DNA of 64,000 nucleotides from Periplaneta americana (lineage: Eukaryota; Arthropoda; Insecta; Blattodea; Blattidae): NCBI RefSeq assembly GCF_040183065.1, contig NC_091132.1, positions 161,346,602 to 161,410,601 on the forward strand. The letters run 5' to 3'. Both the position numbers and the translations under genes were made by a program. Numbering within the stretch: the stretch's first letter is position 1; each line of letters starts with the position of its first letter. This document shows positions 649 through 64,000 of this stretch, in pieces. A model generated the notes under the pieces. That model was not told the origin of the DNA, did no database searches, and saw only the letters and a list, made by a program, of their open reading frames with translations.

Positions 649-899
649 GTTCGTTCCTCCACTGAAAGTAAAAGCCGGAAATGGACGTAAATTATAATAG
701 ATACCACATAAAAGGAGCAGAGGGAGGCGTTACAGGAGTTCACTTAACGATCACAATAACAAACGCCGAAAGGTGTTAGTTGTACATTGAGAGGTACTTC
801 ATCCTTTCACAGTGCCAGTGGAGTCCAGTAAACTCGCTCATGTGACAAGTGTGATTTTCGAAGGCTGACCTAAGACCGCTAGAAGAAACACCTGGATTT
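649..899 (+). promoter_or_regulatory. Leader region and non-coding exon 1, copy 1
   Basis: This block is strongly conserved in all four units and ends at a splice donor (CTGGATTT|GTAAGT, GT at 900-901). It has no long forward ORF, so it is best read as promoter plus non-coding first exon, spliced to the acceptor five bases ahead of the initiator ATG at 3259. The transcription start cannot be fixed from sequence. The upstream part present in units 2-4 is lost here to the LINE. Confidence 0.5.
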
Positions 900-1519
900 G
901 TAAGTCTGAACTGTAAAAGTCCCCTGTGCGAATAAAGTGGGGTAACGTCGCTCAAGTAACAGGGTAATGTACGCACCTAAGCCAGTGCATCTTTGTCGAA
1001 AATTGTTTGCAATATTAACGGAATCTCTATGGACAAAGGAATGTAGGTCCGTGACCCATTTCTTTTAGGGCTCATCCCGATAATCCTCTTAAGAGGCTAA
1101 GGAAATCCTCTGGCAGGATTGTTTATCCAGTTTATAATTTTCACATTACTGCGCATAGGTAATCCAGAAACCTACGTGTCACGGTCTTCTATGTGAATTA
1201 CTATCCAGCTAGCGTAGTTATCCTTTCTAGACGATTCTTTTAGGTCTCTATATATTGGCTGTATAGAGCTAATTATTCTGTGCTAATTTTGGTCTTACCT
1301 CGTAATTACGTTTTACGGCCCAAAGCAGGTATGTAAATTTAAGTATTTCAGTGCACAGTGGGCAATATACTGTTGGATTGTATTCCGCAAAAGACAGGAG
1401 TAAACGACATCCTCAAACTTTCTTCATGACTTTCAATCCGTTGTGCTTTATAACAGATTGTACTAGAGACATGTATTTCATTCTTTGCGTGGTATTATGT
1501 ATAATGTATTTCTGCAAAT

Positions 1520-1787
1520 ACCATTAAGTACGAGAAAAATTCGTACCGGCACCGGGAATCGTAGTATCGATACTACGAGAGGAGTTCGGCCGGCGTCGTG
1601 AATCGGGTCCCGGCATAGCTCAGTTGGTTACAGAGCACTCTAGCGCGCACAGCTGAGAGGTCCTGGGTTCGATTCCCGGTGCCGGTACGAATTTTTCTCG
1701 TACTTAATGGTATAAAAACAAACTGACTAGTCATACTAGTCGAGCAAAATATAATGAGGTGGGCGAGACCTCATTCATATTTGATAC
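1520..1787 (+). mobile_element. Foldback SINE-like insertion with 42-bp perfect inverted repeat
   Basis: The insertion is bounded by a perfect 12-bp target duplication ATTTCTGCAAAT (1508-1519 and 1788-1799). Units 2 and 3 carry one copy of the corresponding sequence, the empty site. A perfect 42-bp inverted repeat lies at 1520-1561 and 1670-1711. Between the arms is a tRNA-like segment with an A box (TAGCTCAGTTGG) and a B box (GGTTCGATTCC); its T arm and 3' acceptor strand are part of the right arm. A 16-bp palindrome, GTAGTATCGATACTAC, adjoins the left arm. The anticodon arm does not fold to a 5-bp stem with a 7-base loop, so it is not a working tRNA gene. Confidence 0.7.
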
Positions 1788-2302
1788 ATTTCTGCAAATG
1801 TTTTCACTTATGTCGTATGACATACAGTTGATTCTTGCTTACCAATTGTATGTTGTATTGTCTCATTCTTTTTGCAGTATTTGTCTTATATGGAACTTGG
1901 GGTCTTGTGAATACTACTCTGCACATTAATAATTATTATAAGCTTTATCTGAATGTTGCAGAGAATGTTTTACTCTGATTACGCAGGAAGGAACAAGTGC
2001 ACAATACTGAAGGAGCGAATATTTCGTATATCGGTTCTCATGACGTCATCTTATTTACTCGGAAATAGAAACGAAATTACACTCCTGATCTCCTCATCCC
2101 CCCCCCCCATCTCTCCTTCACTTCCTCTTATATCTGTCACATCTTGATATATTTTATATCACTCAAAATATCACATATTTCACACATTGCTTATATTTTA
2201 TCTACATTAATTCGACTGCAATGCATATTATATTTTGAAATTACTTACATAGGTAGGCCTAATTTGTTTGGTGAATTATTGTCCCAGTCACATGTTGCTA
2301 AG

Positions 2303-2573
2303 GTGTGTGACTTGAGTGGAAGCTGTGGTGCGTGTCGTAGGAGAGTTGGTCAGGGAGTATTTTGTGACAGTTGTACAATATGATTTCATTGTGAATATAG
2401 TAACACTGATAGTGATGAGGTTAGCCTATGTGATAGTTGGTCATGTCAACTCAGTCACTATAAAACATTAGTTGTGAAACAGGAGGAAACCAACGCCAAC
2501 CTACAATATGAGCGGGAACTTTTCAAAATTTAATTGGGAAATTACACACTGTATATCGTTCTGAAACATATCC
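2303..2573 (+). pseudogene. Cys-rich PHD-like coding remnant, unit 1
   Basis: The frame starting VCDLSGSCGACRRRVGQG keeps paired cysteines and then a charged KQEETNANLQYERE segment, but in-frame stops interrupt it. The unit 3 version (44957-45235) is open throughout. It has no ATG of its own and sits in intron 1, so it is either a decayed exon or an old transposon ORF1 zinc-finger piece. Confidence 0.4.
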
Positions 2574-2945
2574 GAAATTAATTTGTCTACTCCTACCGTT
2601 TTTTTTGCTATTTATTCTCTCTTTATTTTCATGACCAATTCTATCTCTTACTTTTTGTACTCATAATATATATATATCCCACCTGATGCTGTATTCCTAA
2701 CTTTCCTAATTCTTAGTCCTTACTGACATGTAACATGACTAATTTATAATTGTCGATCATTTTGCTATTTACATCACTTCACTAAATAATTCACTATCTT
2801 TACACTATATTCTTATACTTTACATAATTTAAGCGACTCGTACACTTATCTTCCATTGTTCTACACTGTGTCTCTCATGTCCTTAGTTTTCTTTTTTCAC
2901 TTCGTCTATTTCCTACTTTACTCATCCGACACTATTTAGTAAACA

Positions 2946-3062
2946 TCAGCATTTTGTTGAAAACGCCCGATCGAATCCAGTGGAACAAATCATATATAGA
3001 ACTTAGAGACAAACACTATCGTGAAATCCTCGACTTTATTGTTAGACAACTACTGTATTTTA
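2946..3062 (+). other. Unusually conserved intronic block, unit 1
   Basis: Across about 105 bases this block differs from unit 2 at only about two positions, while neighbouring intron sequence differs at roughly one base in ten (counted by eye). It lies about 200 bp upstream of the first coding exon. One frame is open (KTPDRIQWNKSYIELRDKH) but has no ATG. It could be an unrecognised exon or a regulatory element. Confidence 0.4.
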
Positions 3063-3253
3063 TTGCTAGTATCACATGCTCATCTGAGCTGATGTACACA
3101 TTCGTTTGTATTTTTGTGGCAACTTTTGTGTGTTGTGGCCCTCGCACAGAAATAATACACTGCGCAGATGTGGACTTATTGCCAAGCTAGTAAGTCTATC
3201 TCAGTATTTCACATTCTGCATATTAACTTATATTACTTTATTTCCTTTTTCAG

Positions 3254-3351
3254 TTGTAATGGACGTGATCAAGATGGAACCTGGTTCCGACCCAATGGGT
3301 ATACAGACAAGTGGTATCACAGATATAGAAGAGAAGAAGTCTTTATCTGAG
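3254..3351 (+). CDS. Coding exon A, copy 1
   Basis: The acceptor TTTTTCAG ends at 3253, the ATG is at 3259-3261 and the donor GT is at 3352. It encodes 31 residues and ends in phase 0. Confidence 0.75.
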
Positions 3352-6300
3352 GTATATTGAGAGCAATTACTATTTTATGCTCGACCATGCCGAAATGTAG
3401 TAATTATACACCTGGTAGCAGCCCTTTAATGGACCTCATTAAAGTACACTCATTTATTAAAGTCCATGCGTTCCATCAGTCATAAAATAGCATTGTAGCA
3501 ATATGAAAGCGCAAGGATGGATTATTCTCGGATATGCAATCAAAAGACAAATAGCGAAACGTCACTGAGGCTGGAAATCCAATACTGTCGCAGAAGATTA
3601 TGTTGAAGTATCGATCCGAAATAAAATTGAAATGTCAAATACAATATTAAACTCAGTCGAAGAAAACAACACACAAATTAACATCAATTCACCGTTATCT
3701 TCCAGCCTTTCCAGCATATTCCCGCAAATTCATTTCACCAATTATACAATAAATCACCTACATTTGAAATATAGTAAGTTCTGTTACTATACTAATTAGC
3801 GTTAATTGTAAATAAAATTCAAATAAATTCGTTTTGTCACCTCGTTTTTCAGTGTCTAATTTAATTTCAATTATACACCAAGATTAATGTTTATTTTACC
3901 CTCTAGATTATATCAAGGTCAATGTGGACATTTGTTTGTCGGAAAAAATCAATACTTTCGCGTCTGCGCACATCTCACAATTTACGAGGTATTGCACATG
4001 GTCAGTTCCGCTCCTCAGTCAGATAAGAATAAAAGGAATACTTCTGAATAATTTCAAGTTAGAAATATGGTCGAGCATAAAAAGTCGTATGAAACTTGAC
4101 TATAATGGTAATTAAGACACTCGTATGAAAATTATGAAACTCGCTTGCGCTCGTTTTATAAACATACTCGTGTTTTAATTACTACAATTATAGGCTCGTT
4201 GCATAATGTACTATTCTAAATGCTTCATTTATAACTAGGCAGCGCATTCCTTTGTAATTACTTGCTCTTTCTCCACGAAATGAAACATAACTAAAAAAGT
4301 TCAAATTTGTGAATGTGAGGTTACAAACGGAAGTTTGTTTCACATAAAACACACATACTCACAAAATGGTGTGAATACTTACCTTCAGGAAATATATTAC
4401 AAAGACAAAAACCTTGAAGTTTCTTTTACTTGCATGGACTTTTAGTAGAACATTTAAATAATATAAAACTGAATCAATAATAGGTTATTTAGAATAACAT
4501 TAACCTTTCTATTTTGTTTTGGATTCTTCTGATCATACTGGCAACAAAATGTCATACAATAAATATATTCTTTTACTCGTATATCCTGCCTTACAACGTT
4601 TTTCAGATAAATTATTTTAATATTGGTTTGGGAATAGGTACTTTTGCGTTTGTTGACATCGGTATGAATAAAAATGTGGGCGGACTTTATAGTCACGGGT
4701 TTTCGTGAACAACTTTTATTCTCTTTTGTCTAAATATTTTGTAATTTTTGTTTCAGGAAGGAAATTTATTAGATTTGGACGTCACTAAAGTAAAAACTGA
4801 ATGTATAGACCACAGATATGACATGAAATCGGAGATAGTATTTCAAGAATCTGCTGTGCCATTTGACTTTCCTATGCTGAAGAGTGAAGCTGAGGTGAGT
4901 GCAGTTTATGAAGTGTGTTGGTCGGTAGTTCTCTCTCTGTTACTTTCCGGCTGATGTAGCTGCTACAGTCATCCCTGTGATAACTTTTACTGTCCAATTT
5001 TCAAGTTAATTGTTTTACTAGCACTGTTTAGTTTATTTGAATCATATACCGTACTTGCTGGTAATCCATTAGTGTCAAAATGGATGCCCACATCCTTCAC
5101 AAAATGTTTCCATTACTGACTTTGCTTTAAAGATTGGACGAGTTGTACATTTTTAGTGCTTGATTTTCATGTATTATTGTGCTCTGTGTCTGTCTTACAT
5201 AATCTTCTGCTACAGGAAGAGTTTTGTGAGTTGGATCAAGTGAAGGAGGTCAAACTGGAAGGAACAGCAGAAGAGAATGAAGTCTCAACCGAGAGGTGAG
5301 TGTAATATACGAGTCCCTAAATTGTTTTTGGTTTTACTGCTCTATTATGCAATGACGACATAAACAAAATTTATCATTTCCACGTGATTATTTATATATC
5401 AAAACTGCAAGATACCTTGCGGACATAAATGGGATGAATGATATAATATTCTATCACTATCACGAACACCTGCCCTGCTGCTACTTTACCACACCTGCAA
5501 CTGCCAACTAGTGGAGCTGACGGTGCTGCTCTCAAAGATAATACCAAGGCATAGACCTGCCTTCAACTTTTCACATTTAATAGAGAACAGTTCACTGACC
5601 ATTTTCATTGACTAATGGAATGTACTCAGGAAATATAGTTCCTGTTGTTTTCTCAGGTTTGATCCAGCAGTTCTAGTAGGCTTTTGTGTATAGCTTTGAA
5701 GGAAGTGAGTCCTACTTCTCTGCAGCATGTCCATCACAGATCCTGAGTTCTAACAGATAAATTAGAAAACTTCTGTTGATTGCAATTTTAAATTTTAATT
5801 CTGTTCAATTTTTAATTCCGTAATACTCTTGTGTGTATTGTTCTTGGCTATTATTGGTCCGTGTCTCTTTATTAGCACATTAATGTAATAAAAATAAGAA
5901 TAGCCTATTATGTGCCGTTAAAAGTAAAGGTCTTCCATACGGGGTACGTCTTTAGTAACTCATGTGGTCAGTTAATCCGTGTAGGGTATATGTCTTACAA
6001 TATGCCAGATTCTTTGCCACAATCCCTAAAGTTTTTGTTCATTGACAAACTTGGTTCCCAATGCCTGCACAGCCTATATGTTTTGTTTTATTTTTGATAC
6101 TTTGTGAATCTCGTCACCAGTACACTGGACGCTTCTGTGCATATTTACGATCCTTGGTCACTGATTGTACAATTAATATATTAATAAGTACGAAAATGAA
6201 GATAAAGACGATAGTTTTATTATTAATTTTATTGTTATTACAATTATTATTATTTTATTATTAGTATTAATCTAATGGCAAGAACATTGCTTACGAATCA

Positions 6301-8279
6301 TATTCCTATTACACCCATTATTTTACTCATCACTTTCTAGTATCTCAGCTCCCTTGTTGATCTGTTGTCTAGACATGTATGTAGATGTAGATGTTGTCTG
6401 GCCATGTCTTCTTTGGAATTGCATAAGATGCAGGTTGGTGTTGGCATTATTCCAAAGTGGTGAAGGTATTTCCCGAGGCAATGATGATCAGTGCTGAGGC
6501 AGAAAGTTGCAATTCTTGTTCTCTCTGATCACTCTGCTGTGTTCAGGACTATAGTCGTCCGACGATTATGCTGCATTCCTTGTTCCACTACGTTATTATT
6601 TGTGTTCACATTGCTCTGATAAAGTAATAGTAGTGTGCTTTTTTTATTGTTAACCCAGGAGAAGGCACATAAGAATTTTACTTGAAGCAAGTAAAGAGAT
6701 AGGTTTGGAAGTAAATCCCGAAAAGACAAACTATATGATTATGTCTCGTGACGAGAATAATGTACGAAATGAAAATATAAAAATTGGAAATTTATCCTTT
6801 GAAGAGGTGGAAAAATTACAATACCTGGGAGCAACAGTAACAAATATACATTATACTTGTGAGAAAATTAAACACAGAATAAATATGGGAAATGCCTGTT
6901 ATTTCTCGGTTGAGAAGCTTTTATCATCCAGTCTGCTGTCAAAAAATCTTAAAGTTAAAATTTATAAAACAGTTATATTAATGGTTGTTCTGTATGGTTG
7001 TGAAACTTGGACTCTCTCTCTGAGAGAGGAACATAGGTTAAGCTTGTTCGAGAATAAGATGCTTCGGAAAATATTTGGGACTAAGAGGGATGAAGTTACA
7101 GGAGAATGGAGAAAGTTACACAACACAGAATTACACGCATTGTATTCTTTACCTGACATAATTAGGAACATTAAATCCAGACGTTTGAGATGGGCAGGGC
7201 ATGTAGCACTTATAGGCGAATCGAGAAATGCATATATAGTGTTAGTTGGAAGGCCGGAGGGAAAAGGACCTTTGGGGAGGGCGAGACGTAGATAGGAAGA
7301 TAATATTAATATGAATTTGGGGAGGTGTGATATCATGATAGAGACTGGATTAATTTTGCTCAGGATAGGGACCAATGGCGGGCTTATGTGAGGGCGGCAA
7401 TGAACCTCCGGATTCCTTAAAAGCCAGGAAGTAAGTAAGTAAGTAAGTAATTATTATTACTGTTATTATCATAATTATTTAATTTGTACCATAGTTATTT
7501 ATTAATTGTATTAATTGTATCACTGTCTTGGACTTCTATTGTCCAATGTCTGTAGTCCAGCACATAAATATTAATATTTAAATGAATAATTTTTATTATT
7601 ACTATTAATACTGCTGTTATGATTATAATTACTATTATTAATTGTTTTAAGATAATCTATACAGAAATAACTGAAGCAGAATGTCCATTGCTAATGGCAT
7701 ATAGGGTCCCAAAACCAGTAGTGGACACAATTATCCATTTTTTTTTATGTAAATAAATTCTGAGTGGTTGATGTTTTAAGTGATTTATTTTTCAAAATAT
7801 TCATCATATAGTCGACCTGGTTGGCAAGTTGATATAGCGCTGGCCTTCTATGCCCAAGGTTGCGGGTTCGATCCCGGGCCAGGTCGATGGCATTTAAGTG
7901 TGCTTAAATGTGACAGGCTCATGTCAGTAGATTTACTGGCATGTAAAAGAACTCCTGCGGGACAAAATTCCGGCACATCCGGCGACGCTGATATAACCTC
8001 TGCAGTTGCGAGCGTCGTTAAATAAAACATAACATTTTTTTTTTTTTTCATCATATATTTAAACACATATACATTCACTTAGGTATGTTTGATTTTGGGT
8101 GAATTTTTCTGGAAAAATTGTATATCACATTTTGTATAGTGAAGACAAAAACTTAGTAGTGGACACTCAAATTTTAATAGTGGACATAAAAAAATTCAGT
8201 AGTGGACACCCAGTCAAAATAAACAAATGATCTGAAAAAAAATGTAGTCTACCGTAAATAGTAAATAGTCTGCCTTGCG

Positions 8280-8314
<35 letters not shown>

Positions 8315-11300
8315 GTCGTATGTAATTGAGATTGTTTAACCATAAATCTAGAAAAACACAACTTGAAATTTTACAATAATGACATTCAGAGAAGAAAAAA
8401 TCACACTAGGCCTAGGCCATAGTTTCATGTATATTAATTAAAAAAAAAACTTCTACACAGTATGAAAACGACTCCACCATCAGGCATATGTAATCAGAAA
8501 AACTGTCTTCATCTTCACTGAGTGTAGCACAGTTGTGACAATGAAAGGTAACGCAGTCTTCCTCCATATCCTCTTCATCCAAGCGAAATGCATTCACATG
8601 TGACTTTGGTTTTTTTTTAAGTAGGTTATTTTACGACGCTTTATCAACATCTAGGTTATTTAGTGTCTGAATGAGATGAAGGTGATAATGCTGGTGAAGT
8701 GAGTCCGGGGTCCAGCACCGAAAGTTACCCAGCATTTGCTCATATTGTGTTGAGGGAAAACCCCGGAAAAAACCTCAACCAGGTAACTTGCCCCGACAGG
8801 GAATCGAACCCGGGCCATCTGTTTTCGCGGCTAGACGTGCTAACCGTTACTCCACAGGTGTGGACCATGTGACTTTGGGATGCATTTAAAGTTGTATGTA
8901 TCTTTGCATTTGTCACATTCAACCCATGTCTGCTTCAGTTTCAAACTCTTACCATATTTCTTGCAAAGCCATTCGTTGGGATCTTCGTTTAATTTTCTTT
9001 TGTTCTTTTTCAAATTCTTCTTTTTTTTTCTGCTGACAAAATAAAGTGCTGGATCCACTTTTTTGGGAGGAGACAACTGCAGGGAATGGCTGTCTGTGTT
9101 GGGCCACTTTTTTTTCTGGGATCTTTGGATAAAAGAGACATCTTTTAAAGGGGCTGCTAACAGATCCCATTTCTTTAAGGGATATTATGGTGATGAACAA
9201 GATGGACCAGGCTGGGGGCAGTTGGCTGTGACTTGAGATGGATCTAGTAACTCAGCAGTGCTGCTTGCAGGTGTAGCCTAGTAGGTGATTTTTCGGATGC
9301 AGCTGTTTGTTCTAGAGATTCGTTACCCATTCCTGCAGTCACGCCAAATCCTTAGCAGATTCCTGAGGTGACCACTGCTCCCCATCTCGAACCTCCTTGA
9401 AATCTGCCAAAGTGACAGGATTAATTTTCTCCTCCAGCATTTCAATGAAGGTCTTGGTCTGGGATATGGAAGCTTCTCTGCCAGAGGATTAATCAGCTCT
9501 CTACTGTGGATACATTTGTCAAAATTAACAGTTTGACTTTTGAATGGATAAAGCTCAGTGTGTAGAAACCCATTCTTTATTACCTCTTCAGTAGCTTTCG
9601 TTGCAAAGACAGATTGCAAAAGAGCACAAAATGTTTCTTCGGTACATCCTTTGGGTAGTTCTCAAATTTCCACTGGCGTATAACATCCTTCCAGCCACCC
9701 TTGAAAACACTGGCTGCATGAGATGTAGTGCAACCAGCACGATGTCATTTGAGCTGCAGAAGTCACTCACACGGGAGCGGTGGACATCAACAAACATTAT
9801 CACAGGTCGTGGAATATTTTCATTTTTCAATAACTCCATGAAATGATTCGAAATGTATTCGAAGAACACTTCGCTGTTCACCCAGCCACTCTCTGATAGA
9901 CCAATTGCCCATAAATCTGGCACATATTCTGCAACATCTCGTGGCAATCTCTTGTACGTAAAAATGACGATAGGTGGCACAGTTTCTCTTCTTGCCGAGA
10001 AGTAACCCATTACTGTTAACTGTTCCTTCTCGTTGTTGGGTACCTGGTGATAAAAGTCCCCTCTACCCCATGCTCCAAGGACTTTACCACTTTTTGGGCA
10101 CAACAGGAAGCCAGACTCGTCTGCGTTAAATACCCGCCTTGGATGGTTTAGAACGTTCCTGAAGCCATCTGCAGTTAAAGTTAATTCAACTTCTTGAAAC
10201 CATTTCTCGATAATCTTCAATGAACTGATGCACGTGATCGATTTAAACTCTCTGCATGTTTCTCGGAATTTACAGGATTGCATTTCATAAATGCATGATA
10301 CCTCGTCATTCCCAGGAAGTTATTCCTGAAGGGATTGGGTCGTTTATCTGCATCAAGCACCGTCTTCACCGCATTGCATAACAAGTGCCTTGCAATTGGA
10401 AAACCCTTCCTGGCCAATGAGAAAACCCATTGTGCAAGGAGGTTTTCTTCAGCTGCTCTCAACGTATGTGCTGGGCCCATTCTTCTTCCTTCAGGAATAG
10501 TGCCACTGCGCTTCCTGATTAGTGTTGATCTAGGTACCAGCTTCCTTCTTTGTCATACCATTTCGTACTGCTGCTACAGCTTCATTCATCTTCTCCTCAG
10601 GATACTGGAAGACAGGACGTTTAAGCACCATGCAACTTATGTAGGTCACAGTCTTGTATTTGAAAAACCAAATCTATAAGATTATACAGAAACTTATTTA
10701 GGCCTACACAGTAAGAAGAATCTCTAACAGAAAATGAAAACACCCAGAAGTGGGTTAAATCAACTAATTATGTTGGAAAATATTAAGCTGTCCATCATTA
10801 AATACTGTGTGTCCACCATTAAGAACGCTATTTAAATAGTGGACCCCCACGTGTCCAGTACTAAAATATTTAACAAAAGCATGCTTCACTACTGGACAGC
10901 CCCACTGTACAGATTAAATATATTTAGATAACTTTTCTTCTTGTTTTAAATGAAAGGTTACTACAAAACATTATAAATTATATGTATTAAACTTAATAAA
11001 ATCACATAAATTACCAGATGCTTACCGATTCAAAAGCATGCATTCACTATTACCAAGCAGCAGGAACTGAAACTATTTCCGGCATACAGTTGTATTTGAT
11101 ATATCTGACTCAATGATTGGCCCAAACTAAGAGCCAATAGCAATCCACCTTACAAAAAATGACCTGTTTAAAAGCACGAATGCAACTGTAAAGAGAAATA
11201 CCATTGGTTGCGGGTCTTCTTAATAAAAAATGTACCGAATGTGTCCACTACTAAATTATGTTCATTACTAGTATTGGGAGCCTATATTACCTTATTGAAA

Positions 11301-12434
11301 ACTTAGATATTCTTTCCACTTATGATACTTATAATTGTTAGTGTTGCAGTTAGCCATAGTAGCGGAGCTGTAAAATTCTGCGAAAAAATTCCTGAGGAGG
11401 ACGACGGCAAGAAATACGAATGTGACATTTGCGGAATGTTTTTTCTCGACTTTGCAAGACTCAAAGGTCATCACCTCTTACTTAAATGTAACAAGCAATT
11501 CAATTGCGATGTGTGTGGAAAGTGTTTTTCCCGATCGCGGGATTTCGAAAAGCATTCACGCATTCACTCAAGCGAGAAATCGTTCAGTTGTGACGTTTGT
11601 GGAAAGTGCTTTTCAAAGTCCTACGATCTCAAGAGGCATTTACTCGTGCACACTAACGAGAGGCCATTCAGTTGTGACGTGTGTGGAAAGAGTTTTTTGT
11701 CCTTGGCTCATCTCGAGAGACATTCACACGTGCACACAGGCGCGAAACCATTCAGTTGTAACCTGTGTGGGAAGTGCTTTTCAAACTCAGACAATCTGAA
11801 GAAGCATTCACGCGTGCACACAAGCGAGAAACCATACAGTTGTGACGTGTGTGGGAAGTGCTTTTCTACCTCAGACTATCTCACGAGGCATTCACGTGTG
11901 CACACAAACGAGAGGCCATACAGTTGTGATGTGTGTGGAAAGAGTTTTTCGCGCTTGGCTCATCTCGAGAGGCATTCACTCGTGCACACAGGCGCGAAAC
12001 CATTCAGTTGTGACGTGTGTGGGAAGTGTTTTTCATACTCGTACAATCTCAAGAAGCATTCAGGCGTACACACAGTCGCGAAACCATTCAGTTGTAACGT
12101 GTGTGGGAAGTGTTTTTCAAACTCCTACAATCTCAAGAGGCATTCACGCGACCACACAGGCCCAAAACCATTCAGTTGTAACGTGTGTGGGAAGTGCTTT
12201 TCGTACTCCTACAATCTCAAAAGGCATTCACGCGTGCACACAGGCCCAAAACCATTCAGTTGTAACGTGTGTGGGAAGTGCTTTTCAAACTCCGACAACC
12301 TCAAGAAGCATTCACGCGTGCACACAAACGAGAGGCCATTCAGTTGTGACGTGTGTGGAAAAAGTTTTTCGCAGTTGGCACATCTCGAGAGGCATTCACT
12401 CGTGCACTCTGGCCCGAAACCAATTCAGTTGTGA
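3254..12434 (+). CDS. C2H2 zinc-finger protein, copy 1 (spliced, frameshifted near its end)
   Basis: Predicted coding exons are 3259-3351, 4757-4894, 5216-5295 and 11342-12434, joining in frame to 467 residues. The first three encode an acidic leader (MDVIKMEPGSDP, then EGNLLDLDVTK, then EEFCELDQVKE), a pattern recalled from many cockroach zinc-finger genes. The last exon encodes a degenerate first finger plus eleven C2H2 fingers. Each exon is flanked by AG and GT and the phases match those of copies 2 and 3. The likely role is sequence-specific DNA binding in the nucleus, with the leader a possible protein-interaction region; no KRAB, ZAD or BTB domain is seen. One extra A near 12423 shifts the frame, giving ...KPIQL and a stop where the other copies run on through more fingers. 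Intron 3 is enlarged by a LINE and a Tigger element. It may still be expressed as a shorter protein. Confidence 0.7.
4484..4491 (+). other. Empty hAT target site in unit 1
   Basis: A single GTTATTTA lies here, at the position where unit 3 has two copies flanking its hAT element. Unit 2 has the same single copy at 24958-24965. Confidence 0.8.
4757..4894 (+). CDS. Coding exon B, copy 1
   Basis: 138 nt, 46 residues (EGNLLDLDVTKVKTECIDHR and onward), between TTTCAG and GTGAGT, in phase 0 on both sides. The residues are mainly acidic and include a KTEC motif. Confidence 0.75.
5216..5295 (+). CDS. Coding exon C, copy 1
   Basis: 80 nt between CTACAG and GTGAGT, encoding EEFCELDQVKEVKLEG and onward to an AG that is completed by the first base of the finger exon to give Ser. 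Confidence 0.75.
5296..6672 (+). other. Intron 3, first part, unit 1
   Basis: Intronic sequence that aligns with units 2 and 3 and has a short AT/TTA-rich run near 6220-6265. No gene is seen. The alignment to the other units stops at about 6672, where the LINE begins. Confidence 0.6.
6673..7450 (+). mobile_element. 5'-truncated LINE (RTE-like), forward
   Basis: The reading frame covers the C-terminal part of a reverse transcriptase polyprotein, starting at [11 protein letters not shown] and including VLYGCETWTL and the basic RPEGKGPLGRARRR tail. A stop at about 7293 and later frame changes make it non-functional. The 3' end is a run of GTAA repeats, a tail type typical of RTE-clade LINEs. 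The catalytic YADD part is missing through 5' truncation. The left junction coincides with the loss of about 1.2-1.3 kb of host intron relative to units 2 and 3. Confidence 0.75.
7811..8047 (+). mobile_element. tRNA-derived SINE nested in the Tigger element
   Basis: It starts GTCGACCTGG and carries B-box-like GGTTCGATCCC, a conserved body (ACTCCTGCGGGACAAAAT) and a T-rich end. It is flanked by TCATCATATA at 7801-7810 and 8048-8057. The same family occurs nested in the LINEs of units 2 and 3. Confidence 0.85.
8283..8312. repeat. (TA)n microsatellite
   Basis: An uninterrupted TA dinucleotide run inside the Tigger element. Confidence 0.9.
8412..10640 (-). pseudogene. Tigger/pogo transposase, degenerate
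   Basis: The minus-strand order is: an N-terminal helix-turn-helix start (MVLKRPVFQYPEEK, about 10630), a CENP-B-like second HTH (10480-10217), the DDE domain (10283-9588), a C-terminal extension (9619-9323), and a Cys/Lys-rich tail (9076-8412). The first catalytic Asp is in FNADESGFLL and the second in VIMFVDVHRS. The third is lost: after LMQP a small deletion removes the expected Cys-Asp and shifts frame. Another deletion removes part of the first HTH near 10535. The tail (WVECDKCKDTYNFKCIPKSH, then CVTFHCHNC) resembles a PHD finger and is split by a SINE. Its start and end differ from pogo of flies in carrying this tail, as some insect relatives do. It cannot make an active enzyme. Confidence 0.8.
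8610..8865 (-). mobile_element. tRNA-derived SINE inserted in the transposase tail
   Basis: A second SINE family in reverse orientation, with B-box-like sequence GGGAATCGAACCC (as its complement) near 8800 and a T-run at its left end. CATGTGACTTTGG flanks it at 8597-8609 and 8866-8878. It interrupts the PHD-like tail between the codons for PKSH and NAFRL. Confidence 0.8.
11342..12434 (+). CDS. Finger exon, copy 1 (degenerate first finger plus 11 C2H2 fingers)
   Basis: The exon opens with VAVSHSSGAVKFCEK, then an acidic PEEDDGKKYE and a first finger whose last ligand is Cys (CDICG...GHHLLLKC). Eleven regular 28-residue fingers follow, with linkers such as HTGAKPF and HTNERPF. The helix cores run RDF, YDL, AHL, DNL, DYL, AHL, YNL, YNL, YNL, DNL, AHL. 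The three adjacent YNL fingers are nearly identical at the DNA level, so they look like recent internal duplication. Finger structure ends at 12434 after a frameshift. The acceptor is TTGTTAG at 11335-11341. Confidence 0.8.
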
Positions 12435-14178: not shown

Positions 14179-14222
<44 letters not shown>

Positions 14223-41473: not shown

Positions 41474-41543
<70 letters not shown>

Positions 41544-45326: not shown

Positions 45327-45339
<13 letters not shown>

Positions 45340-45368: not shown

Positions 45369-45370
<2 letters not shown>

Positions 45371-45958: not shown

Positions 45959-55208
<9,250 letters not shown>

Positions 55209-55430
55209 AGTCGTGTGATGTGTGTGTTGAGTATTTAGCACTTCCGGATAATCTCCTGATGTTCTTTCGTGCAAAACCGTTCTGTTGTGGTTTGTTTGGA
55301 ATGGAGTTTTCGCTCTCGGAAAATCTTAATGTGTATTCACGTTTCTACACATGAGAAATTGTTCAGTTGTGATATGTGTGGAATGCATTTTTTATGACCG
55401 AAACATCTTTATATACATTTAGGCGTGTAC
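55209..55430 (+). pseudogene. Decayed fingers downstream of copy 3
   Basis: Same post-stop remains as in copy 2: CDVCVEYLALPDNLLMF, FCCGLFGMEFSLSENLNVYS and a CDMCGMHFL piece. Confidence 0.6.
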
Positions 55431-57137
55431 ATAATTATATTTCATTATGTATATTGAAATTTCCTATGCTTTAATCACTGTATAATTTTATTATGCTAGC
55501 TTTAAATTTTACATCAGCAAGAAACTCTTTGTTCTTAATTTTTATAATATATTGTCTACTTTTTTTATTTCTAACGCCAGTATTTTGTGTAAATTTTGGA
55601 ATTAAGGACGAAAAGCTTAAAAATTTAAAGAAGTATATAAAAAAAGCCAAATGAAGTACTGTATATTATTTTGAAAAGAAATTTTAACGCCTTAATATAA
55701 CATTGGAGACTATAAAATTAATTATTAAGTACCATTCCAAATTGTTTTAATATTATATTGATTACTTAAAATTATTATTAGTAATGACTTACACCCATTC
55801 AGATGATGAAAATGTCGCTTGAAGCGCACCGTTTTGATGCCCTTCTGCGAATCCCTCTTTACGCATCAGCAATAATGCACCAGTGTTCCTTTGTTTCATT
55901 TGCCCTGGTACCTTATTTTCATATTTTTCAAATCCTGAAGAACGTAGAATGGTTTACGCAGGTAATTAATAAATCCATGCTGTTGATTGCCGGATTCATT
56001 ACCTACTTTTGGAATTCTGCTCTTTGGTACTGCAATTTAACCGGAAATAGTTTTATTGCACTCCTGAAGAGACTTTCTGTTCACAATATAAACAGACATT
56101 TAAGACCTATCTACGAATTTCAAGAAGTACCATTCGAATAAATATAGAAATGAAGTGACTTTCATTTTTTAAATTTTCCCTAGTACTGGTAGGATTAAAA
56201 AAGTAAAATTTAGCTTTTCTTTTTTCATAACTTGTAATTACATTGTTTTATAACGTTTTAGTGATTCTATTATGTCTAAATTGCCAGCTTTAACGTAGTA
56301 GTAGTAGTAGTAGTAGGAGTAATAATAATAATAATAGACTACAGGAATACAGACAAATATGGAGGTCACATGTCATCAGTATGCCTCGTGCTAGAATTCA
56401 ACGCCAAATTTTAAATTACCATCCTGTGGGGAAAACGTCTTTGGGTAGACTGTTAAAGCATTGTTAAGAGAGCATAACGGGCCATTAGGCTCAATACATG
56501 CAAGGATGATGATAATAATAATGAAAATGATGATGATAATGATGACGAAGATGATGATAATATTTTGACATTTTTATGAGTTTCGAAAAATAAATGTGTA
56601 TATTTAGTAAATTGGACTTGATGAAGCGGACCTACTTATTGTCTTTATAACTATCGATAGTGTGGAACTAAAAACTGTAAACAGATTCTTTGAAGCAAAA
56701 TAGTTGCACACCGGCGTTATTATTGTTGTACTCAAACCAGGCTAGTCCGCACAATGGAAGTTGGCCAAAAAGAAAATTCTCCCATGAATATTGATCTAGG
56801 AATATCCACCCAAAGTGATTACACCCAACTATTTTCATTATTACGCTCACTCACTGGAAATTCACCCTCTGCGATGAAGTTTAGTTCATTTCATGATAAA
56901 TACATTTTTAGCAATTCGTTTCCGTGGTAAATTTTGTATTCAGAAATGTTTTAATCTATATGATTATTTGAAGTTCTTTCTTAACAATTCAAATATTCTT
57001 TCCATGGTTGTACTTTTATTACAAAATGCTTAAGTTTAGATGACTATTTAGAAGGTATACATTTTCAATAGATATCCATGGAGAAATTATTCCAAGTATA
57101 TTACTGATTAGTGTAGTTTATATGTACAATTTTCACT
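55431..57137 (+). other. 3' region, unit 3
   Basis: Aligned with the other units, with AATAAA at 56137-56142 and TAG/AAT-type repeats near 56297-56333. An open 112-codon frame at 55803-56141 matches 13484-13822 but is not judged coding. Confidence 0.5.
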
Positions 57138-57985
57138 CCAGAATTGCCAATCGAACCAAGGGATCTGGGCTTGCAGAAGGAAATCTCATGGCGCAAACTG
57201 GGCGACCACTGGAGCACCAAATGGTTCCTATGTAGAAGTGCAAAATATAAAGTAGATGAAGATGTCCATCCTCCACCATATGAAGAGGTAGGAAGCAGGG
57301 CGTCGATGTACAGCACTAAATCAAGCGGCTCCAGCTCAGGTTATTGATCGTGAACTGCAGCGGGTGCCATCAGACATGCTTCAGTTTTTCATCTGAGAAA
57401 ATCCCTAAAAATAAGTATTAACCAAAGGTCAAAGAACTTTTCTGCCCACCCAAAATCTAACCGAGATCTTCGAGTTATACCAGCAGAATTGCTGTGTTAG
57501 CATTTCTTCCTGTCGAATATGTACCAGCGTGTTTTCATACTGTTCTCCAGACATGCCCAGAATGATGACAGTTTTCGTCATATATTTCAAGGCCACCTGC
57601 ATTGGGATTACTGCAGGAGGGCGTCGGCCTGGTACAGAAGCTCGATATCCTCCTCACTTATGGAATCAGTTCGAAGCAACTAGGTCAAATGATCCACGCA
57701 CGATTGACACAGAAGCATGGCACAACCGCTTCCAGAACATTGCTTGTAAAAAACATCCCACTGTATACAAACTCATACATTATTTAAAGAATGAGCAATC
57801 CGATGTAGACAGAATGATACAGGAGTTGGATCTACGTCGAAGAGTAAAAGAGGACAAAAACGAAAATATAAACCTTATATATAAGGCTGCAAAATATTTC
57901 ACAAAGGTATTATGAATTGAAAGACGATGGACGTATCGATGAATATTTGCGTGCCTGTGGTTACAACATTCGAATCCGAATAAAT
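57138..57985 (+). pseudogene. FLYWCH/MULE transposase remnant, unit 3 (best C-terminus)
   Basis: The frame 57529-57915 is the longest C-terminal remnant of the three: YPPHLWNQFEATRSNDPRT, then EAWHNRFQNIACKKHPTVYK and HYLKNEQSDVDRMIQELD. This matches the region after the catalytic domain of FLYWCH/MULE transposases. The HPPPYEEV piece upstream fits the end of a FLYWCH zinc finger. Confidence 0.65.
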
Positions 57986-58389
57986 TCATCCAAGACTCGG
58001 TTTCTGCAATAAAATAGGCTTAAAGTTTTTCAGGAGATATATAAGCTATTCAGAACTTCGTTCCACCTAAATTATTGCAATATCAATTTTAAAAATATAT
58101 AAAATAATAACTACTGTATATGTAATTTCCTTTGTTCTAATTTCCTCTTGGGTCAATTTGTTTGGGTGAATTCTCCGGTGTGTCCATTCTCCATGGGTCA
58201 AATTTGATTTGGGTGAATATTCTTTTATGTGAACTAGCACCGATATAAATGTACTTGAACAATACGAAATATACAAACATATATGGGTAAAATGAGGTAG
58301 GCATACTTACCAAATTGATTATATTCACTTGTTCATTACTCAATTACTAATATACTGTTAGGAAAACTTAGGTTTATTCTGTACTAAAT

Positions 58390-58919
58390 AATTGATTAAA
58401 TGGCGATCTTACTCGTGTTAATTGTGTAAGCATGTGCGGCTAACAGCTGTTTCGGTGCTTCTTCACACCATCCTCAGAGCCTACTAGATCTCGGCGTCAT
58501 CTCGAACTTCGCTGCCTGTTTCGTGGTTTGCGTTCGATTGTTGAAACGTATTGAAATGTGGTGTGAAATAGTATGTGTGTTCTGAAATTGATGTGTGTGT
58601 TGAGAATTTGATGAGGTTGTGTTTTAGTGTGTCTGTATATTTCATATTGTTCTAGTGTGTTGAGTTTTTGATTTGTATGTGTAGGATTTCCATGTCTGTA
58701 TTTATGTTATTGTATGTGTGGTTAGAATTAACTATGTGTTCGGCATATGTAGATGTATTGTGTCCTCTGGTTATTGGTTTAAAGTGTTCTTTTGTATCGA
58801 GTTTGGAATGATCTGCCTGTCTGTCCAATGTAGAAACTGTCGCAATTATTGCATGTGAGTTTGTATACGCCGCACATCCTTACATAGTTAACACGAGTAA
58901 GATCGCCATTTAATCAGTT
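58390..58919 (-). mobile_element. Penelope-like GIY-YIG fragment bounded by inverted repeats, unit 3
   Basis: Inverted repeats at 58390-58430 and 58879-58919. Same structure as in units 1 and 2; the frame is broken here. Confidence 0.7.
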
Positions 58920-58997
58920 ATTTATATTGAAGTGTTAAAAGTAGTGTACGAAAGATTCAACATGGATTATACTGTAAGTTACTCCGTAAAACGTATA

Positions 58998-60343
58998 TAG
59001 TAGCGTGCAAACTAATCCGGACAACGTAATTACTTATGCAAAAACACTCAAACAGGATAAAAAAAAAGGATCTATGACATACCTCAGTAATCTATGTGGC
59101 CTCCCTTGTTCCTAATAACTGCTCTGAGACGATTTGGCATGGATTCCACTGATTTCCCACAAATATTCTTCATTTCTTCATCGCGAAACCATACACCAAT
59201 GAGGGCAGAAATCATCTTCTCCTTTGTAGAACAATCCATTTTTTGCATTCTTCTTTTGCAAATTGACCACAAGTTCTTAATGGGGTTGATGTCGGGTGAG
59301 TTGCCTGACCTGGGAAGTACCTGAATATTCTTCTTGTTGAAGAATTCTGTAGTTTTTCGAGACGTATGGCATGATGCCAGGTCTTGTTGGAACACACCTC
59401 TGCCATCCGGAAATGATTTTTGCAGCTGGGGTACGATTCTGGTTTCCATTAAGTGAATATATTTGTCAGAATTCATCATTCCCTTGGTAGGTATTAATGC
59501 TCCAGGCCCTTCATGTGTAAAACAACCCCAAAACATTACTTTAGGGGGGTATTTGGGTGCTTGTTGGAGATGAGCTGCTGCTACTTTTTCGGATCGTTTC
59601 CATACGTAAGAAACACGGTGGTCGTGGACCTCAAAATGAGACTCATCGGAAAAAAGTACATTCTTCCAGTCATTCACTGTCCAGTGTTGATGTAATTTTG
59701 CCCACATTAACCGTTTTTTGCACATAACAGGGGTTAGCAGTTGCTTCTTAATAGGCTTACGAGGCCTTCATCAAGCTTCCAAAAACCTACGCCGCACTGT
59801 TGTGACGTGAATATTCGCCCCAGTGGTAGCCATTAACTCGCGGGTTAAGACGACAGCAGTTAGTCTAGGATTTCATTTACTTTTCCTGGCAATTAAATGA
59901 TCATCTGCAGGTGAAGTCTTCCTTTTCCGGCCACAGTTTCCTTTTTTGTGGGGTGTGATGGATCCAGTCTCCCTGTATCGTTTTATGATCGAATTAACAG
60001 TAGCCAAACCGATGTGTCATTCTGCAGCAATTTGCCTCTGTCATAGAAGAATGCTCTGCTACTGTTATAATTTTAGACCGTTTTCGTGGAGCTGTATCCA
60101 TTTGTGAAGACGACAGAATGTACACAGGATTGCAGTATTAAATCTTCAACACAACTGAAATGCTTGTAAGTACAAAACGACATGCAAAATGTCACATATT
60201 ATAAAAAAATAATAATGACAGACCATCAACAACGGAATTACACGTACTACAGATGTCAATTAAAGCGGTATGAGCAGCTGTGAGGCCAAGAATAACAGAA
60301 AATGTAAAAATATGTCATGTTCGGATTAATTTGCACGCTACTG
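58998..60343 (-). mobile_element. Tc1-type DNA transposon
   Basis: The ends are TAGTAGCGTGCAAACTAATC on the left and, reverse-complemented, CAGTAGCGTGCAAATTAATC on the right, with TA at 58996-58997 and 60344-60345. Units 1 and 2 show the uninterrupted site (ACGTATATAGGC) at about 16685 and 38768. Length 1346 bp, normal for Tc1 elements. Confidence 0.9.
59084..60101 (-). pseudogene. Tc1-family transposase, broken
   Basis: It begins MDTAPRKRSKIITVAEH at 60101. Two HTH pieces follow in shifting frames (ATVNSIIKRYRETGSITP, TTVRRRFLEA). From 59725 to the stop the DDE domain is in one frame: LFSDESHFE holds the first Asp, QQDLASCHTS the second. Exactly 34 residues later, where DD34E enzymes have the catalytic Glu, the sequence reads PIKNLW, so Lys replaces Glu. 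Frame breaks in the N-terminal third plus this substitution make the enzyme inactive. Confidence 0.85.
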
Positions 60344-60369
60344 TATCTCGTAGAGTTTTTGTTGCTCAA

Positions 60370-60775
60370 CGTCTGATTAAATATGTTATGTATTTTCATT
60401 ACAATTTAAACAACAAAATAACTATATTCGTTATGGATAAATATCTGAGACCGGATGCTGATCCTCGTTTTGATTTGGCTAACAAAGTATGGACACATTG
60501 ACAAGTTAAATCTGATTAATTAGGTATCTCATTCTGTTTATGGGTGTATATGTGAAAATAGTAGCCTACATATTTATGAATTTGCCTTAGCCATTCTCAG
60601 TTCTCCACATATAGTCCTGGAGGAACGTAATGAAATATATACTAGACATTTACCTGCAAATAGAAGAGAACTATGTGGACAGGCTATAGCTCACTATGGG
60701 CCTATGCAGACACTGCTAACTCTATGTAATACAGGAAACTACTATATTTTAAAGCCGTAAATCGACCTCCAAATA
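60370..60775 (+). mobile_element. Ty3/gypsy-like gag remnant, unit 3
   Basis: Contains MDKYLRPDADPRFDLANK and EERNEIYTRHLPANRREL. Old and broken. The Tc1 element inserted just to its left. Confidence 0.55.
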
Positions 60776-61802
60776 ATTATATTCGTGACCTTTTTTTTTC
60801 CTGGACTCTCTTCTTCTCAAATGCGTCAGAGGGTTTTGGAAGGTAATACTCTCACACAGGCTTTAAGCTAGAAAATAAATAATTGTCGCAAAAATCCACA
60901 AATGGAAAATTATATTTGTGCAAAATAAGAAAATGTTGTAAAATATTCTAAATAATTGTACAAAAAAGATTAAATTAATAAGATTTATAGTAACAAAAAT
61001 ATATGTAATTGGTTTCGTGGAGTTTTATTACTTTAAGTCAAACTTACAACACTCTAGATGTGCATATGCAAGTAAATAATCTGACGTAGGTGTGTTTACA
61101 ATCGATTACTGCTGAATTTACATCACATCAAAATACGTTATTTTATGCGCATTCCAAACATTGAAATTCCTTACCACTAGGCTCTTCAAGATTTATTAAT
61201 AGCAGAGTGCTAGCTCCTTTTACTCAAAGACGGTTTCTAATTACATTTTTTACAAGATTTATGTGCAACTAAATCCTCGCCCACATTTTACGACATGCGA
61301 TGAAATTACTCTATATAAGTTAATTAGAAAAAATTTTTCACTTCACTTGTTAACTTGCATGAATTGTACCAAATTTTTTAAATCCATTCCTGAACAACTA
61401 TTGTTCAATATTTTCTTGAACATTGCCCGTGCCATTAGCAATTCATTTACATTCAAATTCTCCAGAACTGATTAGTTGAAACACATCTCTGATTTCATTT
61501 TCTCCAATTCCATCTTCGTTTCTGAAGTGCAGTGTGGTTGTCACATTTTTGCACATTTACATTCAAGTTTGAACTGTGAACTTTCCTATATGAACAGATA
61601 GAAACTGTCAAATTCGTACCGCAGTGCACTATTCTCTACTTCTACTGCTAATGGCAAACTTAAACTATTTCGCCATAATAATGGTAAAGAATTATTAAAA
61701 GTTATTAAAAGAAGTTTTTCTTTCACCTAAACATCCATTTCCCATGTTAACTACAAAGAGAGATAGATGCGATTCAAGAGTGCCAATAATGCGAAGTAAA
61801 AC
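60776..61802. other. Intergenic segment at end of unit 3
   Basis: Aligned with the ends of units 1 and 2. No gene is recognised. Confidence 0.5.
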
Positions 61803-62212
61803 TTCACGTTTTTGGCAGGAATTATATACAGCCGTGGACGAATTTGGTTGAAAGAGAGGGAAACTGGAGGAAAAGCTTTAAAATGCACAGTTGAAGGTGT
61901 GCTTGTAAGGGTGTTTGGGGCTGAGAAAAACTAAATATGTGGTCTCCAAGCCCGTTAACCACGTTTGTATATCTGGTTTCGTTCCTCCACTGAAAGTAAT
62001 TTTGAAGGTGAAAAGCCGGAAATAGACGTAACCTAATAGCTAGCACATAAATGACTTAAGGATTACAAGAACAAACGCCCAAAATGTGTTAGGTGGACAT
62101 TGAAAGGTACTTTATTCTTTCACTGTGTTAGTTGTGTCCAATAAACTCGCTCATATGACAAGTGCGATTTTCCAAGGCTGACCTAAGACTGCAAGAAGAA
62201 ACACCTGAATTA
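61803..62212 (+). promoter_or_regulatory. Leader region and non-coding exon 1, copy 4
   Basis: Matches the other leaders. The donor context is CTGAATTA|GTAAGT (GT at 62213), showing that the splice signal is kept in a fourth copy. Confidence 0.5.
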
Positions 62213-62560
62213 GTAAGTCTAAACTGTAAATTCCCCTGTGCGAATAAAGTGCGGTAACGTCGCTCATGTAACAGGGTAATGTACGAAGCTAAGCCAGTGC
62301 ATCTTTGTCGAAAATTGTTTCTAATAGCGGAATCTCTATGGGCAAAGGAATGGAGGTCCGTGGCCCATTTCTTTTAGGGCTCATCCCGATAATCGTCTTA
62401 AGCGGGGTTTTCCTAGCAGCGCACTTTTTATGTCGCGTATAACGTAAAACGCATTACTCAGTGCGCTGCGTACTGTGTTCTAGAAACTTCGAAAAACGCA
62501 GCAGATGTCGCAGACTCTCAACAGCTGTGATTGTATGAAGAGTATGAACTGAACTTCAAA

Positions 62561-62895
62561 ATGAGTTGTGCATTAAAACGGAAAAAATTGTGTTTGTTAT
62601 TGGTGTTACTTGACTTTGAGGATGTAGAAGAAGAAATCGATTACCTGGTTCATCATTATTGCATTAGGAAGTCTGTTAGTGAAGTATTTTTCTGTAGAGA
62701 AAAGGAGGGAGTTTTCAGAATACTGATCGAAAAACATCTACTAGACGATGAAGTGAAATTTAAAGCATATTTCAGATTCACCCGAGAACAATTCTATTTC
62801 CTTGTGAACCTCATGCAAGATGATTTGTCTACAAAACCATGCAATAGAGTGAAAAGGCCTATCTCACCAGCCGAAAAACTTGCTCTAACTCTGAG
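62561..62895 (+). CDS. PIF/Harbinger transposase, N-terminal exon
   Basis: From the ATG at 62561 the protein reads MSCALKRKKLCLLLVLLDF and includes FKAYFRFTREQFYFLVNLM and RPISPAEKLALTLR, the N-terminal hallmark of HARBI1-like transposases. CTGAG|GTATGT at 62895 could be a splice donor. If unspliced, the frame ends at 62932. The catalytic DDE part is not found between here and the convergent gene at 63277, so exon 2 is either lost or lies beyond that gene. Confidence 0.65.
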
Positions 62896-62932
62896 GTATG
62901 TATTAGGAATGGTGTACATACAGAATGATTAA

Positions 62933-63276
62933 TTATTTCACCTCTACAGTACACACAGAAAGTATTCACATGTAATAATGAATCACCCTGTATATTGTAT
63001 AGCTATAGCTTATATATTTTTAAAATGAATTTTGCATTTTTCGTACAACTACATAGTCCAAGTTTATTCATTAATCTTATACATACCACATTTAAGTTCA
63101 AAATTTCCAAAAATGTCCACTCATATCTTCAGAACATTCTACATTTGAGTTTGTAAACATTGTATTGTTGTCACAAGTAGATGACTCAAAAGTTGTGCTG
63201 GGTGAATACTGTGACTGCAAGCCTACTGTACTGCTGACGGTTCACCAGTGCTCCAGTTCGAGTTGTAGGATGCGTT
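62933..63276. other. Spacer between the convergent Harbinger genes
   Basis: AT-rich, with no transposase motif in any frame that I can recognise. Confidence 0.5.
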
Positions 63277-63929
63277 TCAGCTTGGCCTGGAGTTCTCCGA
63301 ATCAAATGTGGAAGCATTTCCCACACGTATAGGCCTGTAACTGCGGACTTCCATTTCAGTCACAAGACTAAAAATTTTCATTTTTGCTTCAGTTCTGACT
63401 TCAGGATCAAATTTTTTCACAGTCGCAGCCATGGTTCTGAAGAAGAGATCAGTTTCGTCTTCTGCTTCAGGCTTCATAATTTTTTCAAAGTGTTCTCTGG
63501 TCTGTAGTCGCTCTTGTTTTCTTTCATTAAGTAAGTTCACAATGTTGTTCTTTCTGACTTTTTTGGTTTTTGTCTCAGGCGTCTGGCAAGTTGAACGTTC
63601 TGGTAAATTTTCTTTCTTTCTTTTCTCTTGATTTTCAGATTCATGTCCTGTGCTCGTAGCATACGAATCGTAAGTTAGTGGATCATCCGTTGCTTCGGAA
63701 GCAAGACTACAAATCGTGTCTTCCAGGGTTTCATTACTGTTTCCGCTTTCAGTTTGCATATTAGAAAAACTTTCTCGTTCATCTTCCACTGTATCAAGGA
63801 ATCTTAGCCTATCCCAATATGATGCCCTTTTCTTCGTAGCAGCGGACCCTGTTCCTGTATTCTTTTCTTGTTTCCGCTGTCTCTTGTAATGGTCCCTAAT
63901 ACTTTTCCATCGCATTTTGCATTGTCCAT
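63277..63929 (-). CDS. MADF/BESS accessory protein of the Harbinger element, 3' exon
   Basis: The minus-strand frame starts after a good acceptor (TTTCTTTTAG, complement at 63930 onward) with DGQCKMRWKSIRDHYKRQRK, the second half of a MADF DNA-binding domain. An acidic/Ser-Thr linker, a basic block (TKKVRKNNIVNLLNERKQER) and a C-terminal BESS-like segment follow (DLFFRTMAATVKKFDPEV). The first MADF half must be on an exon to the right of the window. Such proteins accompany PIF/Harbinger transposases and help DNA binding. The frame is open to its stop. Confidence 0.7.
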
Positions 63930-64000
63930 CTAAAAGAAAAAAACAAGTTATATGTACGAGGATTTTCACATAAAATATACGGTACATAAATTAATGCTTT

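What the first reader, a model, noticed from the sequence alone, without database searches (positions are those of the whole stretch)
649..64000. Tandem zinc-finger gene array with a readable insertion history
Three full units and a fourth start are colinear, and nearly every younger transposon has an empty site in a sister unit. The LINE+SINE pair in units 2 and 3 but not 1 gives the branching order ((2,3),1). The unit-specific insertions came later.
Basis: seen in the sequence. Interest (0 to 1): 0.7.

Follow-up and report, generated by a model that had tools for sequence, protein, structure and literature searches.

The report
Patchwork zinc-finger gene array in cockroach
This stretch of what is almost certainly the American cockroach genome holds side-by-side copies of a zinc-finger gene that appear to have swapped pieces since they duplicated, so a transposon shared by two copies dates only the piece it sits in and not the whole copies.

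Summary
The window carries three colinear units of a multi-exon C2H2 zinc-finger gene and the start of a fourth. Of 14 distinct insertions tested, 13 have an empty site in a sister unit. The LINE with a nested SINE is shared by units 2 and 3 and is empty in units 0, 1 and 4.

One branching order ((2,3),1) does not fit whole units. It fits a ~10-kb tract that contains the LINE (singletons 480:178:140); the right half is a star, 218:214:211. Trees disagree by block: E gives (2,3) at 100/99; the start of A gives (1,2) at 92/94; R3 gives unit 1 with the upstream copy at 94/96; R1 gives unit 2 with three loci 16-21 Mb away at 91/90 (weaker without its repeat).

The array continues outside the window within a family of at least 30 loci on two scaffolds. 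The assembly matches Periplaneta americana by size, scaffold count and GC. N-terminal coding exons are open in the 30 loci examined.

Best reading: an ordinary lineage-specific zinc-finger cluster reshuffled by ectopic conversion or unequal crossing-over. New member of a known kind; modest interest.

The parts
650..18367 (+). Unit 1 as seen in the window; unit DNA also continues upstream of the ~4.2-kb insertion whose end is 1-649
18368..41951 (+). Unit 2
41952..61793 (+). Unit 3
61794..64000 (+). Start of unit 4, broken near 62401 by an element; the unit resumes at 65671 outside the window
18974..29984 (.). Unit-2 copy of the tract in which units 2 and 3 are sisters (unit 3 counterpart about 42562-55540, unit 1 about 1071-13219); edges approximate
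19857..21283 (-). LINE fragment with nested SINE, unit 2; 13-bp TSD with one mismatch
43445..44871 (-). Same LINE with nested SINE (about 43918-44148), unit 3; RVT_1 2.7e-23. 'SINE' is my label, by eye and recall
46086..46916 (.). Dispersed element shared by units 0-3, empty in unit 4 and unit X (unit 3 copy)
1520..1787 (+). Unit-1 SINE-like insertion with tRNA-like part (1609-1687), TSD ATTTCTGCAAAT
7692..11294 (-). Unit-1 pogo-like element (DDE_1, E 0.00086, below gathering score) with terminal inverted repeats; ends about 50 bp before the zinc-finger exon
21507..22890 (.). Unit-2 element with terminal inverted repeats (GGCCTGTTTCTCAAA)
32663..36872 (+). Unit-2 Mutator-like element (PF20700 2e-65), 8-bp TSD GTACAACC
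47201..49395 (-). Unit-3 element with a DUF659 ORF (hAT-like by recall), 8-9-bp TSD
59001..60350 (-). Unit-3 element with a DDE_3 ORF (Tc1/mariner-like by recall)
62401..64000 (.). Unit-4 element with a MADF ORF (Harbinger-like by recall; the transposase-like ORF 62531-62929 had no Pfam match), runs to about 65670
23729..23821 (+). Unit 2 coding exon 1 (from ATG; phase 0 donor)
25233..25370 (+). Unit 2 coding exon 2
25689..25768 (+). Unit 2 coding exon 3 (phase 2 donor)
28830..29652 (+). Unit 2 zinc-finger exon, 9 fingers, open (acceptor 28830 or 28842, inferred from phase)
54134..55208 (+). Unit 3 zinc-finger exon, 12 fingers, open; three more fingers (252 bp) than unit 2
11342..12434 (+). 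Unit 1 zinc-finger exon, 11 fingers in frame, then frameshifted
31200..32060 (.). Unit 2 block R1, which groups with remote loci rather than with units 1 and 3

Best explanation
This is a piece of a large lineage-specific cluster of C2H2 zinc-finger genes in a cockroach, almost certainly Periplaneta americana. Each ~18-24 kb unit holds one gene: three short N-terminal coding exons, then one exon with 9-14 fingers in the intact copies. Units arose by duplication. Later, sequence was exchanged between units, by gene conversion or out-of-register crossing-over, so different parts of a unit have different closest relatives. Units 2 and 3 are clear sisters only over a ~10-kb tract that includes the LINE+SINE; other blocks trace to a neighbouring unit or, in R1, to loci many megabases away. 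The proteins most likely act as sequence-specific DNA-binding regulators that diversify by changes at base-contact residues and by gain or loss of whole fingers. Shown: units, insertions, empty sites, open exons, conflicting trees. Inferred: splicing, exchange mechanism, protein function, species.
For: Segmentation of 1542 informative sites from 10801 gap-free columns: tract 480:178:140, right part 218:214:211 (best of the 1-4 segments tried); a single breakpoint gains 48.5 log units, reached by 0 of 300 permutations. Block E tree of 30 loci: (u2,u3) 100/99, p-distance 0.049; u1 lies 0.088-0.094 from them, like loci far away, e.g. 0.091 to one on another scaffold. AU tests in E reject (u1,u3) at p 1.8e-5 and u2 with L012, L019, L020 at p 8e-90. 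R1: u2 with remote L046-L048 91/90 plus a shared 18-bp deletion; (u2,u3) rejected p 0.0015. R3: (r0,r1) 94/96 inside a local clade 100/99; r1, r2, r3 without r0 rejected p 0.013. Start of A: (u1,u2) 92/94. Exon 1 has no stop or frameshift in 31 of 31 rows and exon 2 in 32 of 32 (30 distinct loci each; a few in-frame deletions), exon 3 in 30 of 30 with AG/GT. Over 63 fingers the contact positions -1, 2, 3, 6 carry 2.6-3.1 bits. Units 2 and 3 differ by exactly three fingers.
Against: Without its dispersed-repeat part R1 no longer rejects (u2,u3), p-AU 0.127, and (u1,u3) falls to 60/50, although u2 with remote loci keeps 91/88. Keeping u1, u2, u3 as one clade in R1 is not rejected (p 0.075). In R3 (r2,r3) is in the best tree with support 51/23, so it is not rejected. 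The rejection in block A is marginal (p 0.0475) and R2 is unresolved. The block E tree places u0, u1, u2, u3 together at 84/81, a weak sign of simple local descent. Groups other than (u2,u3) were named after seeing trees, which the AU test does not allow for. The segmentation has no outgroup and leaves out the finger-exon body and two blocks. Between units 2 and 3 exons 1-3 show 17 replacement against 1 silent change, which does not speak for constraint in that pair. No reads, transcripts or second species were examined.
Confidence: 0.78

Rival explanations
1. One reading: whole units duplicated in the order ((2,3),1) with no later exchange; uneven divergence reflects uneven mutation rate or selection.
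For: LINE+SINE shared by 2 and 3 with empty sites in u0, u1, u4; (2,3) supported in A2+B, C+D and E; not rejected in R3 nor in R1 without its repeat (p 0.127).
Against: Uneven rates along the unit should scale all three distances together and leave 2-3 the closest pair; the right part is 218:214:211; r2-r3 are 0.090 apart against 0.049 for u2-u3 in E; (u1,u2) in A, u2 with remote loci in R1.
Confidence: 0.1
2. The mosaic comes only from unequal crossing-over with breakpoints at different phases of the unit, without gene conversion.
For: The (r0,r1) block and the (a1,a2) block are contiguous across the unit boundary (R3 to start of A), as an out-of-phase duplication would leave.
Against: An adjacent duplication that makes left2 and left3 sisters should make r1-r2 or r2-r3 equally close; they are 0.084 and 0.090 apart in R3 ((r2,r3) support 51/23). 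R1 links unit 2 with loci 16-21 Mb away. Extra losses would be needed.
Confidence: 0.3
3. Units 2 and 3 are an assembly artefact, such as joined haplotypes.
For: They are the closest pair over part of their length.
Against: No N in 144 kb; each unit carries its own insertions; r2 and r3 are 9% apart in R3; the assembly matched by size is HiFi with contig N50 42.4 Mb.
Confidence: 0.03

Closest known systems
Mammalian KRAB zinc-finger gene clusters (PMC5363842, PMC2604467: passages read)
   Same: Clustered, lineage-specific growth by duplication, rapid change in the finger array, signs of recombination and gene conversion between paralogues, pseudogenes beside genes.
   Different: The N-terminal part (124 residues, two units scanned) has no Pfam match at E up to 1, so no KRAB was found. 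PMC2604467 reports no positive selection in the fly and mosquito expansions; a site test was not run here.
Insect C2H2-ZF expansions, APEZ/ZF271-like in aphid and milkweed bug (PMC6444547: passages read)
   Same: Large, independent expansions of multi-finger proteins with pseudogenes and array variation.
   Different: Homology with APEZ/ZF271-like proteins was not tested.
Drosophila ZAD-ZNF genes (PMC9810180: search listing only)
   Same: Insect multi-finger gene family (the listing names 27 related genes).
   Different: No ZAD domain found in the N-terminal part of the two units scanned.

Membership tests
Poly-C2H2 zinc-finger genes | Tandem C2H2 fingers | tested here: met
   zf-C2H2 1.1e-50 and zf-H2C2_2 4.3e-63 in unit 3; 9, 12 and 14 fingers in open u2, u3, X
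KRAB zinc-finger proteins | N-terminal KRAB box | tested here: not met
   0 Pfam families at E up to 1 in the 2 N-terminal sequences scanned, joined from predicted exons
ZAD-ZNF | N-terminal ZAD domain | tested here: not met
   same 2 sequences
APEZ / ZF271-like insect expansion | Grouping with aphid and milkweed-bug members | not tested
   no such proteins were compared
Array with one duplication order | All unit blocks share one tree | tested here: not met
   (2,3) itself rejected in A (p 0.0475) and in R1 with repeat (p 0.0015), not in R3 or R1 without repeat
Multigene family with exchange between units | Blocks of one unit with different nearest relatives | tested here: met
   weakest in R1 without its repeat
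Gene conversion as the mechanism | Non-reciprocal copying shown | tested here: inconclusive
   conversion and repeated crossing-over are not separated

The most novel reading that the evidence does not exclude
The unit behaves as reassorting modules: the N-terminal half, the finger array and the right flank are exchanged separately between clusters 16-21 Mb apart on one chromosome, so new regulators arise by shuffling modules as well as by mutation.
Probability: 0.27. Interest if true: 0.55.

Novelty: new member of a known kind. Interest (0 to 1): 0.33.

Why it matters
It is a worked case of a shared transposon insertion giving the right history for a tract and probably the wrong one for the whole unit. 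It also marks a zinc-finger family of at least 30 loci with open N-terminal exons in a repeat-rich insect genome, where one can test whether exchange follows module borders and whether fingers track transposons. The main text of the paper on the matching assembly has no occurrence of 'zinc finger' or 'tandem'. The titles and abstract starts listed by my paper searches showed no study of this cluster; these lists were capped (0 papers; 25: 20 of 13,642; 26: 20 of 787; 58: 12 of 23; 59: 1 of 1; 60: 10 of 52).

Tried and rejected
My first reading of R1 as a (1,3) grouping in the three-way alignment came largely from a short misaligned stretch beside the extra 1.1 kb of unit 2; R1 was redone with outgroups. 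I considered the finger array as the universal exchange joint: it may fit the borders of old unit X, but the 2-3 tract ends just beyond the exon, so I do not claim it. An ORF of about 120 codons open in all three units in block D (2828-3190 and counterparts) shows no excess of silent change, so I do not call it an exon. The first tree of block E mixed strands and was discarded. Exon 3 was first mis-located in unit 1 and redone. In one search an apparent empty site of the block-D element in unit 3 is spurious (I gave rough element ends; I use), and so is the hit of the unit-1 SINE query on unit 1 itself. Two paper searches with insect terms gave nothing on this family.
Full report
What is there. 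The window lies at 161,346,602-161,410,601 of scaffold C16 of a 3,231,669,367-base assembly in 91 contigs. Total size, scaffold count (91) and GC (35.5%; window 35.7% by the base counts) match P. americana PAMFEO1_priV1 (PMC12774602: abstract, assembly section and found passages read). Self-comparison shows three colinear units and a fourth start, in register at 650, 18552, 42136 and 61978.

The gene. Each of units 1-3 holds a plus-strand gene. In unit 2, coding exon 1 is 23729-23821, exon 2 is 25233-25370 and exon 3 is 25689-25768, followed by the finger exon ending at 29652. The splice phases fit (0, 0, then 2 into the finger exon), but splicing is predicted, not observed. Exon 1 has no stop or frameshift in 31 of 31 rows and exon 2 in 32 of 32; each set holds 30 distinct loci, and a few rows have in-frame deletions. 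Exon 3 is open with AG/GT in 30 of 30. pN/pS over exons 1-3 is 0.57 for the 30 rows; for units 2 and 3 alone it is 17 replacement against 1 silent change, which I did not test formally. The finger exon is open in units 2 (9 fingers), 3 (12) and X (14), frameshifted in unit 1 after 11 fingers, interrupted by stops in unit 0, and divergent and frameshifted in unit 4. Of the fingers matched by the pattern, 63 of standard length went into the count: contact positions -1, 2, 3 and 6 score 2.97, 3.09, 2.88 and 2.57 bits; one position after the first histidine scores 2.80, so the contrast is strong but not exclusive. Units 2 and 3 differ by three whole fingers; elsewhere in that exon pS is 0.110 and pN 0.046. 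The N-terminal part of units 1 and 3 matches no Pfam family.

Beyond the window. Forty kilobases on each side hold no N. Upstream lie a further unit (u0), an older divergent unit (X, 65-79% in most left blocks) and a right half (r0) at about 90%. Unit 4 continues after a ~3.3-kb element to about 69.3 kb. Block E has 47 matching pieces, a lower bound, on C16 between 156.4 and 182.7 Mb and on C17 at 11.65-11.74 Mb. I took the 30 that were cut out as loci.

Insertions. Of 14 distinct insertions tested by joined flanks, 13 have an empty site in at least one other unit; those of the pogo-like element are weak (72-74%). Target-site duplications were read for the SINE-like (12 bp), LINE (13, one mismatch, by eye), Mutator-like (8) and hAT-like (8-9) elements. 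The LINE carries a nested SINE-like piece whose other copy in the window is at 7810-8040. A dispersed element in block D is shared by units 0-3 and by two loci at 160.88-160.90 Mb, and is empty in unit 4 and X. Names such as hAT, Tc1/mariner, Harbinger and SINE rest on the Pfam or Rfam matches and on recall.

Does one tree fit? Eleven of the 13 blocks give 10801 gap-free columns and 1542 informative sites; block H (TTA-rich repeat) and the block absent from unit 1 were dropped, and the finger-exon body was never in. Best of 1-4 segments: start of A 10:20:32; tract 480:178:140; a 39-site run beside the unit-2 extra 1.1 kb that I read as misalignment, 1:34:4; right part 218:214:211. A single breakpoint gains 48.5 log units against a maximum of 10.6 in 300 permutations. 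So units 2 and 3 are sisters in the tract, and no pair is closer in the right part.

Trees by block. E, 30 loci: (u2,u3) 100/99; unit 1 is no closer to them than several loci far away; u0-u3 together have 84/81. AU rejects (u1,u3) at 1.8e-5 and u2 with L012, L019, L020 at 8e-90. A2+B 97/96 and C+D 94/94 for (u2,u3); in C+D unit 0 joins them at 98/98. Start of A: (u1,u2) 92/94, (u2,u3) p-AU 0.0475. R3, 11 rows, with the 7 best matches outside the array out of 43 matches in all: local clade 100/99, (r0,r1) 94/96; (r2,r3) has 51/23 and is not rejected; r1, r2, r3 without r0 p 0.013. R1, 8 rows, 5 of 43 matches fetched: u2 with L046-L048 91/90, (u1,u3) 83/88, an 18-bp deletion shared by u2 and the three remote loci; (u2,u3) p-AU 0.0015, but (u1,u2,u3) p 0.075. 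Leaving out the dispersed-repeat part of R1, u2 with remote stays 91/88 while (u2,u3) is no longer rejected, p 0.127, and (u1,u3) falls to 60/50. R2: C16 and C17 matches lie at 84-91% with units 1 and 3 and r0 not set apart, and the four-row tree is unresolved, 57/26. Of the groups tested, only (u2,u3) was named before the trees were seen.

Reading. (r0,r1) in R3 and (a1,a2) in the start of A are contiguous stretches across unit borders, so they may be one out-of-phase duplication; the 2-3 tract would then be a later overwrite (inference). The R1 link to loci 16-21 Mb away suggests exchange between clusters, with the caveats above. Gene conversion and repeated unequal crossing-over are not separated here.

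Literature. KRAB zinc-finger clusters show the same habits (passages of PMC5363842 and PMC2604467), and large independent C2H2 expansions are known in insects (passages of PMC6444547). Hence a new member of a known kind.

Noticed in passing
window 25380-25690: The intron between exons 2 and 3 is conserved across 29 family loci (mean divergence from unit 2 about 0.05-0.09 per 60 bases, against 0.15-0.19 in 24960-25199 upstream); no reason found.
   Followed up: partly
window 2828-3190, 23293-23661, 45530-45895: An ORF of about 120 codons is open in all three units upstream of exon 1; its substitution pattern does not look coding.
   Followed up: yes
window 7692-11294: A pogo-like element in unit 1 ends about 50 bp before the zinc-finger exon and may disturb its acceptor; the same exon is also frameshifted.
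   Followed up: partly
window 16170-16604: GIY-YIG-like ORF (E 0.00024, below gathering score) in block R2 of unit 1, perhaps a Penelope-like remnant (recall); block R2 is present in all three units.
   Followed up: no
window 35982-36344: THAP-domain fragment (2.2e-9) inside the unit-2 Mutator-like insertion.
   Followed up: no
L032-L034, window coordinates about -24200 to -11000: An old divergent unit X sits between less divergent neighbours, its divergent part bounded roughly on both sides by zinc-finger exons, as if a unit had been exchanged at the finger arrays.
   Followed up: partly
L046-L048: Three remote R1 copies (C16 at 177.7, 182.8 and 179.5 Mb) differ by only 3-4%, although the block E copies nearby (L019, L012, L020) do not form a trio of their own in the tree; that they belong to the same units is inferred from distance.
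   Followed up: partly
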